Assembly: GCA_015058295.1 (NCBI GenBank)
Contig: SVCP01000007.1
Location: 1-54,916, forward strand
DNA from: Anaerofustis stercorihominis
GTDB lineage: Bacteria; Bacillota; Clostridia; Eubacteriales; Anaerofustaceae
Reading direction: 5' to 3'
DNA length: 54,916 nt
In this document: one piece after another, positions 48,980 to 51,286 of the stretch
How the letters are laid out: each line of letters starts with the position of its first letter
How positions within the stretch are numbered: position 1 is the stretch's first letter
Translations under genes and position numbers: made by a program
Notes under the pieces: generated by a model
Database searches by the model: none
The model's input: the letters and a program-made list of their open reading frames with translations, nothing else
Told to the model about the DNA's origin: nothing

Positions 48980-48998
48980 TATGTGAAATAATTAAAAA

Positions 48999-49032
48999 CA
49001 GCTCATCGTAACTTGCGATGAGCTGCTTTTTT
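48999..49032. terminator. Bidirectional terminator
   Basis: CAGCTCATCG and CGATGAGCTG around TAACTTG, followed by C and six T on the plus strand, with AAAAA on the left for the minus strand. Confidence 0.92.
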
Positions 49033-49041
49033 ATCTCACAT

Positions 49042-49893
49042 TCAGTATATGCAGTTCTGCAACACCCATGATTCTCCCATTTTCTTTTCTCCGACATATT
49101 CAAACTTTATAGTCAGTATGCCGCAGTCCGCAGAAATTATTTTTCCTTCTCCCCATATTTTGTGGATGACGATATCCCCTGCGGAAAGTGATTTTTTAGT
49201 TTCTTCAGAAGTAAACTCCTGCATATTCTGGCGAAGAGGTTCTTTGGGAGTTTCTCCGAACATTTCTATGAACATGTCAGGATCCTTGACCTTGTCAATA
49301 AGACCGAGTTTTGATAACGAGAGAAAAACCGCCGCTGCTCTTGCCTGACAATTTATACTCTTCTGAGGATTGAATTCTATGTCAGTAAAAGCATCATACT
49401 CAAACAATGTTTTTGCAATGTCGTCATTTTCAAGCAGTGCGTTCATATATATGTAATCATAAAACATATTTACCGGTTCTGCGGGAAAGTCTTTGCCATC
49501 AAATACAAATTTTATGATTTTACCGCTGCTTTTCAACCGTTCATCGGTTTTCGCTTCTTTTGGGGAGACATTAAGCAGGTCTGTGTACGGGCCACCATTC
49601 TCAAATACTTTTCCTGCCTGATAGATATTTTCCACGCAAATACTCTTTCCGAGTGACGGTACATATTTTTTCATGTTAAATGCACTAAGCAGATCGCCGT
49701 TTTTTTGCATCGATTTGCTCGATATTTCCAGTACCTTCATTTCGGGAACCACCCTATGAAAAGCTTCGTGTATCGCAGTGATATTTTTCTTCTTTTGTGA
49801 CGGAGCCATTCCTGAATTGTAAATAAAATCAACATTACATACAGTAAAATACGGGGCTTTCTCGTTGGTAATGAAAACAGGTCTTCTTGCCAT
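49042..49893 (-). CDS. NADAR-like domain protein (DarT1-associated antitoxin-type family)
   Basis: A 283-residue cytosolic protein. The ATG at 49893 follows AGAGAGGTG; an in-frame GTG upstream lies inside that site. The start R-R-P-V-F-I-T and the central part V-E-N-I-Y-Q-A-G-K-V-F-E-N-G-G-P-Y, S-P-K-E-A-K-T-D-E-R-L and Y-D-A-F-T-D-I-E-F-N-P-Q-K-S-I-N-C-Q-A-R-A-A resemble proteins annotated as DarT1-associated NADAR antitoxins. NADAR proteins remove ADP-ribose, in known cases from guanine bases modified by DarT1. A C-terminal region (about 240-283; G-D-I-V-I-H-K-I-W-G-E-G-K-I-I) looks like a small SH3-like or CarD-like barrel. No DarT gene is adjacent. Recalled by pattern, not by search, so moderate confidence. 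Confidence 0.68.
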   Translation of the reverse strand: MARRPVFITNEKAPYFTVCNVDFIYNSGMAPSQKKKNITAIHEAFHRVVPEMKVLEISSKSMQKNGDLLSAFNMKKYVPSLGKSICVENIYQAGKVFENGGPYTDLLNVSPKEAKTDERLKSSGKIIKFVFDGKDFPAEPVNMFYDYIYMNALLENDDIAKTLFEYDAFTDIEFNPQKSINCQARAAAVFLSLSKLGLIDKVKDPDMFIEMFGETPKEPLRQNMQEFTSEETKKSLSAGDIVIHKIWGEGKIISADCGILTIKFEYVGEKKMGESWVLQNCIY

Positions 49894-49933
49894 AAAATTC
49901 ACCTCTCTTTATTTAAAAATTTGTCGGAAGGCT

Positions 49934-49977: not shown

Positions 49978-50009
49978 AAAATAAAAGAACAGGAATTTAA
50001 CTCCTGTTC
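49978..50009 (-). terminator. Terminator of the DUF308-like membrane protein gene
   Basis: Perfect arms GAACAGGA (49987-49994) and TCCTGTTC (50002-50009); on the minus strand the stem is followed by TTTTATTTTAT. The TAA stop lies in the loop, so the last codons are part of the stem. Confidence 0.85.
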
Positions 50010-51286
50010 GGCAGGGCATACAGTGTTTTTGATACAACAAATGAGTTTTTCCTTCTGAATTCGCTGTCCAGATAATCATAATATGTTCCCGGTGTAAGTA
50101 TTCCGGAAAAATCGAACAGACTTACTCCGATTTTAGAAGTAATTTCCTGTACCAGTGCAGCACAGTTCGTTGAAAGCCCGAAATATGTTTTGAACTTATT
50201 GTATTTTCCATCTTTGAATTTGTAGAAAAGTGCATCGGTAGCCTTATACAGCGAACTTGCATAATCCAGTTCATATTGAGTTGATGATATCAGGTCTGAT
50301 TGTGAACTCATTATCGGCGGCTCCCACGGAGTAAGGTTTTCAAAAATATCTTTCAGCTTCCATTGCATGCGCATTTTATCTTCATCGTTGAGTTTGATCC
50401 CGAAGCTTACAATATGTTTATTGCTTACCTCAAGGCAAAATCTGATATATTTGTTTCTGTCAATAACTTCGATTACTCCGTCACCAAGCATACCGTTAAG
50501 CCGATAGCTCGACTCATCATAATTTCCGTAAGACAGGACATAATTGTCAAAGCACAAATCTACATGGCCGACTTGTCCGTACAGTGTGTCTGCCATATGT
50601 ATAAATATCTCTATGTCACTTTCCGTATCATCGGACGTATGGTTTATTTTGTCTATCGGCAGCTCATTATTGTCCATAAGTTTATTTATGCTTTTAAGGA
50701 TCCTTTTGGGAATGAAAGCACAGATTATAGCCGGGAGAGGAATATGGAATTTTTTCTTTTTACGTCTGTGGAATATATTAAACGATGCCACGATATCAAG
50801 AAACACACACAATCCATATACCATAAAATACATTCCAAGCCACCTGTTTAATTGCTGCAATCGATGTTCTTTTCCAAAAAGAAGTCGCAGAGAAGAGAAA
50901 ATTTCAAACGGTATGAGAATGAAGTATCCTGTTCTTGATCCTGCATTGTCTTTTCTGCGCTGCACAATAGCAATAATATGTATGAACGCCAGTAGGGCCA
51001 TATATGCGGCGCTTATAAATTTCATCATAAACAGAAGAGATGAAGGTTTAAGTAATAAGATCAGACCGAAGGCAATGTTAACAACACTTTCTAACATAGC
51101 AGAATCTTTATCTGTCATAAGGTATGTGAGCGCAGACCTGACAGCACCAAGCATAAGTGTTGCCGTGCTGGTATAATAGACATATTTTATCAGAATGTCA
51201 AAATGGTTTCTCATGATCAGCCCTGATACTATGTATAACAGAGCAGTAATTATATCCGGAACTGCAGATCGTATTTCTTTTTTCAT
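49997..51286 (-). CDS. DUF308-like membrane protein with possible permuted papain-fold domain
   Basis: I do not know this protein as a named gene. Its 429 residues split in two. Residues 1-170 contain about six membrane helices with the look of the DUF308/HdeD family. Residues about 225-429 are soluble, with G-H-V-D-L-C-F-D at 240-247 and S-T-N-C-A-A-L-V near 372-379. A histidine strand followed much later by a cysteine helix start is the order seen in circularly permuted papain-like (NlpC/P60 or YiiX-like) enzymes; His241 and Cys375 would be catalytic. A basic K-K-K-K-F linker suggests the soluble part is cytosolic. It is a single-gene unit; a minus-strand TATAAT lies at plus 51315-51320. 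The enzyme reading is an inference. Confidence 0.72.
   Translation of the reverse strand: MKKEIRSAVPDIITALLYIVSGLIMRNHFDILIKYVYYTSTATLMLGAVRSALTYLMTDKDSAMLESVVNIAFGLILLLKPSSLLFMMKFISAAYMALLAFIHIIAIVQRRKDNAGSRTGYFILIPFEIFSSLRLLFGKEHRLQQLNRWLGMYFMVYGLCVFLDIVASFNIFHRRKKKKFHIPLPAIICAFIPKRILKSINKLMDNNELPIDKINHTSDDTESDIEIFIHMADTLYGQVGHVDLCFDNYVLSYGNYDESSYRLNGMLGDGVIEVIDRNKYIRFCLEVSNKHIVSFGIKLNDEDKMRMQWKLKDIFENLTPWEPPIMSSQSDLISSTQYELDYASSLYKATDALFYKFKDGKYNKFKTYFGLSTNCAALVQEITSKIGVSLFDFSGILTPGTYYDYLDSEFRRKNSFVVSKTLYALPNRS

What the first reader, a model, noticed from the sequence alone, without database searches (positions are those of the whole stretch)
49042..49893. NADAR-like protein without a DarT partner, own promoter
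The protein resembles DarT1-associated NADAR antitoxins (V-E-N-I-Y-Q-A-G-K-V-F and S-P-K-E-A-K patterns), enzymes that remove ADP-ribose from guanine. In known systems the DarT toxin gene is adjacent. Here both flanks are unrelated and the gene has its own consensus promoter and terminators. It also has a C-terminal SH3/CarD-like extension. It may be a housekeeping ADP-ribose remover, a solitary defence against foreign DarT, or act on another substrate.
Basis: partly seen in the sequence, partly recalled or inferred. Interest (0 to 1): 0.6.

Follow-up and report, generated by a model that had tools for sequence, protein, structure and literature searches.

The report
Solitary DNA-mending NADAR with Tudor tail
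This gut-bacterium gene encodes an apparently intact enzyme of the kind that strips ADP-ribose from guanine in DNA, normally the antidote half of a toxin-antidote pair, but here it stands alone, belongs to a whole lineage of toxin-free relatives, and carries a tail like the one that lets the PcrA/UvrD repair helicase grip RNA polymerase or UvrB.

Summary
Confirmed. Window 49042-49893 (-) encodes a 283-aa DarT1-type NADAR: Pfam NADAR-DarT1 E=1.9e-81, AlphaFold model (pLDDT 93) matching the G. lovleyi NADAR antitoxin 8bat at Z 31. The four residues needed by E. coli C7 NADAR (E88, K95, K115, D171) are kept. The genome (98.9% complete) shows no DarT and no other NADAR. The gene has its own promoter and terminators. 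It lies in a fully supported clade of 23 solitary NADARs with no darT nearby; 21 of the 23 genomes lack any DarT, and two have only DarT2-DarG. Ten of the 23, this one included, end in a PcrA/UvrD-type Tudor domain; here RNA-polymerase-binding H, W and K are kept and L is M. DarT1-linked NADARs instead often end in a QLSLF-like, sliding-clamp-type motif (34 of 48; solitary clade 0 of 23). Best reading: a chromosomal, toxin-free guanine-ADP-ribose hydrolase, tethered by its Tudor domain to RNA polymerase or UvrB, mending ADP-ribosylated single-stranded DNA. Catalysis and tethering are inferred from residues and fold, not tested. New variant of a known kind.

The parts
49042..49893 (-). Solitary DarT1-type NADAR gene, 283 aa (ATG 49893, stop codon 49042-49044)
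49261..49890 (-). NADAR (YbiA-like) hydrolase domain, residues 2-211; catalytic E88, K95, D171 and antitoxin residue K115
   Evidence: Pfam PF22397 E=1.9e-81; 8bat Z 31.1, rmsd 1.6, 215 aligned; alignments
49192..49254 (-). Flexible linker, residues 214-234 (low pLDDT)
   Evidence: linkers of 17-49 aa in relatives
49045..49191 (-). C-terminal PcrA/UvrD-type Tudor domain, residues 235-283; H244, W247, F264, K270, M272 align with PcrA H681, W684, F705, K712, L714
   Evidence: residue roles from PMC5397179
49934..49962 (-). Sigma-70/A-type promoter TTGACA-17-TATTAT
   Evidence: TTGACA-17-TAATAT before the sister-species orthologue
49902..49908 (-). Ribosome-binding site AGAGAGG
48994..49030 (-). 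Terminator after the NADAR gene (also terminator-like on the + strand for the convergent gene, 48999-49025)
49987..50009 (-). Terminator of the upstream gene, separating it from the NADAR promoter

Best explanation
The gene encodes a chromosomal, toxin-free DarT1-type NADAR: a hydrolase that directly removes ADP-ribose from guanine in (single-stranded) DNA. Its own promoter, rather than a darT operon, drives it. A flexible linker joins the hydrolase to a PcrA/UvrD-type Tudor domain. By analogy with PcrA/UvrD, that domain docks on the beta-hairpin motif of the RNA polymerase beta lobe or the like motif of UvrB, placing the hydrolase where single-stranded DNA is exposed during transcription (bubbles, R-loops) or excision repair. 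The lesions would come from foreign guanine ADP-ribosyltransferases such as incoming DarT1, since no DarT is found in the host. Shown by computation: family, fold, conserved catalytic residues, absence of DarT, solitary clade, purifying selection, Tudor fold and its conserved contact positions. Inferred: catalysis, docking partner, source of lesions.
For: Family and fold. E88/K95/D171 invariant in 81 sequences and K115 at least 90% conserved; these residues are tied to activity or antitoxin rescue in E. coli C7 NADAR (PMC11543638), and non-cognate NADARs rescue cells from DarT1. No DarT in the own genome or in the genus sister; 19 of 21 other clade genomes have no DarT, and the two that do carry DarT2-DarG pairs. 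Clade of 23 solitary NADARs at SH-aLRT 100. dN/dS about 0.11 for L023/L025, core about 0.06 and Tudor about 0.13 (from dN and dS). Own strong promoters are a clade feature: 6 of 23 at 11+/12 against 0.1 expected. Tudor profile: all eight PDB hits at E below 0.1 are PcrA/UvrD C-termini, best 3.4e-5; 9 of 9 members match PF21196; closest folds are 5dma, 9dqs, 7egt (with UvrB) and 7egs (with the RNA polymerase lobe), Z 8.3-8.6. H and K invariant, W/F/Y and L/M conserved at the positions studied in PcrA. Host RpoB carries ATGELI at the docking motif (motif from PMC8318588).
Against: Nothing biochemical was tested. 13 of the 23 clade members show no Tudor domain, so the tether is not needed for whatever the core clade does. 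The own Tudor is only 29% identical to that of the genus sister, against 62% for the hydrolase domain, so it is less constrained. The first two positions of the docking motif in host RpoB differ from the published pattern (AQ instead of [VIL]D). No toxin or lesion source was identified.
Confidence: 0.55

Rival explanations
1. Solitary immunity or anti-addiction gene: the protein neutralises DarT1 arriving with phages, plasmids or competitors, and the Tudor domain is incidental to that. This differs from the best explanation mainly in purpose.
For: NADARs from other species rescue cells from DarT1 (PMC11543638). DarT1-NADAR pairs occur in related Clostridia (L039, L044, L053, L062, L064, L069) and on plasmids and viral contigs. 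The antitoxin-specific K115 is kept. Distribution is patchy: 4 of 391 class genomes.
Against: No placement in a defence island: the window is core chromosome (FtsZ, MurG and a tRNA). Mobile DarT1 normally brings its own NADAR. It does not explain the Tudor domain.
Confidence: 0.3
2. Relic antitoxin: the darT1 partner was lost and the antitoxin is drifting.
For: The clade groups with DarT1-linked antitoxins, so loss of a toxin partner somewhere is plausible, although the tree is unrooted.
Against: Solitude is shared by 23 diverse lineages with intact catalytic residues and low dN/dS; a further domain with a constrained surface is present; own promoters are kept.
Confidence: 0.07
3. The enzyme acts on another substrate (ADP-ribosylated RNA, a nucleotide or a protein) brought to it by the transcription machinery.
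For: NADAR superfamily members have several proposed roles, including riboflavin intermediates and RNA processing (PMC11125620). A Tudor domain at RNA polymerase would place it near RNA.
Against: It has the DarT1-type active site (D171 rather than the YbiA glutamate) and K115, traits tied to DNA guanine-ADP-ribose and DarT1 rescue.
Confidence: 0.15
4. The Tudor domain binds UvrB rather than RNA polymerase, so this is an accessory to nucleotide excision repair.
For: The UvrD Tudor binds UvrB through the same kind of motif (7egt; PMC8318588). Foldseek ranks 7egt first among Tudor domains.
Against: In PcrA both partners share one surface, so sequence cannot separate them; RNA polymerase is far more abundant in cells (general knowledge).
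Confidence: 0.3

Closest known systems
DarT1-associated NADAR antitoxin (DarG1; G. lovleyi 8bat, E. coli C7), Pfam PF22397
   Same: Fold, about 44% identity to 8bat, and the E88/K95/K115/D171 residue set
   Different: No darT1 in the locus or genome; no QLSLF-like C-terminal motif; a PcrA-type Tudor domain instead; own promoter
Stand-alone bacterial NADARs of the YbiA type (E. coli YbiA, sigma70-linked NADAR of EPEC)
   Same: Not encoded with a toxin; superfamily fold; guanine-ADP-ribose hydrolysis expected
   Different: Different subfamily (aspartate D171 rather than glutamate; N-terminal extension of the DarT1 type); PF08719 does not match in the host genome
PcrA/UvrD C-terminal Tudor domain (5dma, 7egs, 7egt)
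   Same: Fold at 1.1-1.6 A, H/W/K positions kept and L replaced by M, tethered by a flexible linker at the C-terminus
   Different: Attached to a hydrolase rather than a helicase; low sequence identity (22-26%)
DinX, a Y-family DNA polymerase with a PcrA-type Tudor tail (PMC6511836)
   Same: The same kind of Tudor tail on an unrelated DNA-repair enzyme, proposed to mean transcription-coupled repair
   Different: A translesion polymerase, not a lesion-reversal hydrolase

Membership tests
DarT1-associated NADAR protein family (PF22397, BC4488 subfamily) | Profile match above the curated cut-off over the whole domain | tested here: met
   273 bits against 27, positions 1-211 of 212
DarT1-associated NADAR protein family (PF22397, BC4488 subfamily) | Catalytic E88, K95, D171 (aspartate in place of the YbiA glutamate) and K115 | tested here: met
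   All present at the same numbers (roles)
DarT1-associated NADAR protein family (PF22397, BC4488 subfamily) | YbiA-like fold with N-terminal beta-beta-alpha extension | tested here: met
   Model m61a73768eada against 8bat Z 31.1, 215 of 219 residues
DarT1-associated NADAR protein family (PF22397, BC4488 subfamily) | Guanine-ADP-ribose hydrolase activity | not testable with these tools
   Needs an assay
DarTG1 toxin-antitoxin system | darT1 gene adjacent | tested here: not met
   Neighbours are unrelated
DarTG1 toxin-antitoxin system | DarT1 elsewhere in the genome | tested here: not met
   PF14487 and a DarT1 profile both negative; the profile rings in G016 at 3.6e-90 as positive control
PcrA/UvrD-type Tudor domain | Sequence-profile similarity | tested here: met
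   The set of 9 matches PF21196 (best 4.2e-6) and PDB UvrD/PcrA C-termini (3.4e-5); the single sequence alone is under the Pfam cut-off (20.3 against 23.9 bits)
PcrA/UvrD-type Tudor domain | RNA-polymerase contact residues H, W, K, L | tested here: met
   H244, W247, K270 identical; L replaced by M272
PcrA/UvrD-type Tudor domain | Binding to RNA polymerase or UvrB | not testable with these tools
   Needs a pull-down or co-structure

The most novel reading that the evidence does not exclude
NADAR de-ADP-ribosylases are tethered to the machines that expose single-stranded DNA: toxin-linked NADARs to the replication sliding clamp through a C-terminal QLSLF-type motif, and a solitary branch to RNA polymerase (or UvrB) through a PcrA-type Tudor domain. 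The latter would be a transcription-coupled direct reversal of DNA ADP-ribosylation, which the searched literature does not describe.
Probability: 0.3. Interest if true: 0.8.

Novelty: new variant of a known kind. Interest (0 to 1): 0.55.

Why it matters
DarT1-type NADARs are described as antitoxins. A conserved, toxin-free lineage with an RNA-polymerase/UvrB-type docking domain suggests that guanine ADP-ribosylation is a lesion cells meet often enough to keep a dedicated mending enzyme, and that mending may be coupled to transcription. The sliding-clamp-like tail of the toxin-linked relatives makes a concrete prediction about where the antitoxin works. Both can be tested with small proteins in laboratory strains.

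Tried and rejected
DarT1 hidden elsewhere: the E=0.017 PF14487 fragment in G000 has three in-frame stops and is under the cut-off; the DarT1 profile finds nothing. YarT-like HYD1 toxin as partner: no match over the cut-off in 24 genomes, best E 0.04, and control genomes such as E. coli also ring at that lax threshold. Conserved neighbour as hidden partner: all-against-all comparison of neighbours in the clade found none shared widely beyond antisense ORFs and generic ABC/HTH genes; a DUF308-type membrane gene is shared with the genus sister only. SOS control: LexA-like boxes no more frequent than in shuffles. Mobile-element origin: no match in phage records; no Tudor hit in viral-contig relatives; of 28 plasmid records only three cover 80% or more of the query, at 38-43% identity and annotated with DarT, and these were not read closely. 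CarD-like reading of the tail: CarD scores lower than PcrA/UvrD, although by only about one Z unit. Test that loss of DarT goes with loss of the clamp-like motif in independent pairs: only 3 pairs on supported branches, so no significance is possible. Motif counts treat related sequences as separate, so they are not independent events.

Full report
Observation. The ORF at 49042-49893 (-) is real. ATG 49893 follows an AGAGAGG ribosome site, and relatives start with the same M-A-x-R-P-V. Pfam NADAR-DarT1 (PF22397) matches residues 2-211 with E=1.9e-81, and the solved G. lovleyi NADAR antitoxin 8bat matches with E=6.9e-50. An AlphaFold model from an 81-sequence alignment has mean pLDDT 93 and superposes on 8bat with Z 31.1, 1.6 A over 215 residues.

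Active site. In E. coli C7 NADAR, K95 and D171 are needed for efficient hydrolysis; E88Q inactivates the enzyme while E88A has only a minor effect in vitro; E88, K95, D171 and K115 are all needed for rescue from DarT1, K115 being dispensable for catalysis (PMC11543638). All four are present here at the same numbers; E88, K95 and D171 are invariant across 81 sequences and K115 is at least 90% conserved. The aspartate at 171 marks the DarT1-type (BC4488) subfamily rather than YbiA.

Solitude. The neighbours are an Ig-domain secreted protein (convergent) and a DUF308-type membrane protein; the wider window is core chromosome with FtsZ, FtsQ, MurG and EPSP-type genes and a tRNA-Leu. PF14487 finds no credible DarT in the genome (98.9% complete) or its genus sister, and a profile of 20 DarT1 proteins finds none either while ringing at 3.6e-90 in the positive control G016. 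The host has no YbiA-type NADAR (PF08719), and PF22397 matches only this gene, so this is its only detected NADAR.

Expression. The promoter TTGACA-17-TATTAT (11 of 12) ends 40 nt upstream of the start codon, between the terminator of the upstream gene and the start; a terminator follows the gene. The genus sister G010 (same contig as L021, a sheep-gut MAG labelled Eubacteriaceae) has a syntenic orthologue, 53% identical, with TTGACA-17-TAATAT upstream. In the clade 6 of 23 upstream regions reach 11 of 12 promoter matches against 0.1 expected in simple (mononucleotide) shuffles. No SOS box enrichment was seen.

Clade. A scan of 85,000 species genomes gave 411 relatives, of which the best 80 were kept. 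Of the loci examined, 49 have a DarT ORF in the fetched stretch, nearly all directly adjacent. The query and its nearest relatives (23 rows) form one group with SH-aLRT 100, none with a DarT in the fetched stretch (a quick tree without bootstrap, root not inferred). Whole-genome PF14487 searches on 21 of these genomes found a DarT in two, each followed by a macrodomain DarG, so these are the thymidine system DarT2-DarG and not DarT1; their completeness is not told by the tool. The tree needs three changes for the Tudor label, and one origin is not excluded. Family prevalence is low and patchy: 2 of 13 genomes in the family, 6 of 67 in the order, 4 of 391 in the class. For the close pair L023/L025, dN 0.086 and dS 0.79 (ratio about 0.11; core 0.043 against 0.74, Tudor 0.083 against 0.63), so both parts are under purifying selection.

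Tudor tail. Nine clade members carry a C-terminal domain of about 50 residues behind a 17-49-residue linker, and a tenth (L027) has it behind a frameshift. Its profile matches PcrA/UvrD C-termini in the PDB (7egt 3.4e-5, 5dma 0.0014, and six more with E below 0.1), and all nine members match PF21196, best 4.2e-6. The window protein alone scores under Pfam's cut-off (20.3 against 23.9), so the assignment rests on the set and on the fold. VIA-align ranks the PcrA/UvrD domains first after 8bat (Z 8.3-8.6; CarD 7.2-7.5, other Tudor and SH3-like domains 6-7), and Foldseek likewise puts UvrD/PcrA Tudor chains next after 8bat. In Geobacillus PcrA, H681, W684, K712 and L714 were mutated to test RNA polymerase binding (PMC5397179); the matching residues here are H244, W247, K270 and M272 (the H and W pairing is seen in the 5dma alignment and the K-x-L pairing in the 7egt alignment). 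PcrA's Tudor docks on a beta-hairpin motif of RpoB and UvrB, [VIL]DxxTGE[VIL][VILT] (PMC8318588); host RpoB has AQPATGELI at this place (read by eye; the automatic pattern did not match because the first two positions differ). The host's own PcrA has a closely similar tail. A like fusion has been described for DinX polymerase, with transcription-coupled repair proposed (PMC6511836).

Toxin-linked tails. DarT1-linked NADARs frequently end in QLSLF, QGSLF or QLSIF-like sequences. By a broad pattern 34 of 48 have it in the last 12 residues, against 14 of 385 other ORFs of the same loci and 0 of 23 in the solitary clade; shuffled tails gave 7.9 of 49 expected. This resembles the bacterial sliding-clamp-binding motif (established knowledge). 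Related sequences are counted separately, and the test on independent pairs had too few pairs to be significant. A DarT1-binding role for the tail is an alternative. Searches for NADAR with 'sliding clamp' or 'Tudor' found no relevant paper in the library, and the main NADAR structure paper mentions neither.

Conclusion. The protein belongs to the DarT1-associated NADAR family by every feature that could be tested and is not part of a DarTG1 toxin-antitoxin system. The best explanation is a toxin-free guanine-ADP-ribose hydrolase that docks on RNA polymerase or UvrB through its Tudor tail. Catalysis, docking and the source of the lesions remain inferences that the listed assays would settle.

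Noticed in passing
L003, L039, L041, L043, L060, L066, L073, L074, L093, L097 and other DarT1-linked loci (C-termini of the NADAR proteins): DarT1-linked NADAR antitoxins share a C-terminal QLSLF/QGSLF/QLSIF-type motif resembling a beta sliding-clamp-binding peptide; absent from the solitary clade.
   Followed up: partly
L010:5674-7346 (G039:C23): Another, distantly related solitary NADAR lies divergently next to an ADP-ribosylglycohydrolase gene (PF03747, E=8.8e-39), a second kind of ADP-ribose remover.
   Followed up: no
L026:6655-7119 and L038:6662-7126 (similar ORF at L028:10078-10671): A small dual-specificity-phosphatase-like protein (weak PF00782 match) sits directly downstream of two Tudor-less solitary NADARs.
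   Followed up: no
L027:6600-6884: In Lachnospiraceae bacterium TWA4 the Tudor part lies in another frame behind an early stop, in an A-rich stretch; possibly a sequencing error.
   Followed up: partly
window 49997-51286 (-): DUF308-type membrane protein with a C-terminal half holding GHVDLC and TNCAALV motifs (perhaps an NlpC/P60- or LRAT-like hydrolase); it is conserved next to the NADAR gene in the sister species (50% identity).
   Followed up: no
Lactococcus lactis plasmid pIL105, NC_000906.2 703-2068 (L130): A small plasmid carries a DarT-NADAR pair whose NADAR is annotated only as a hypothetical protein.
   Followed up: no
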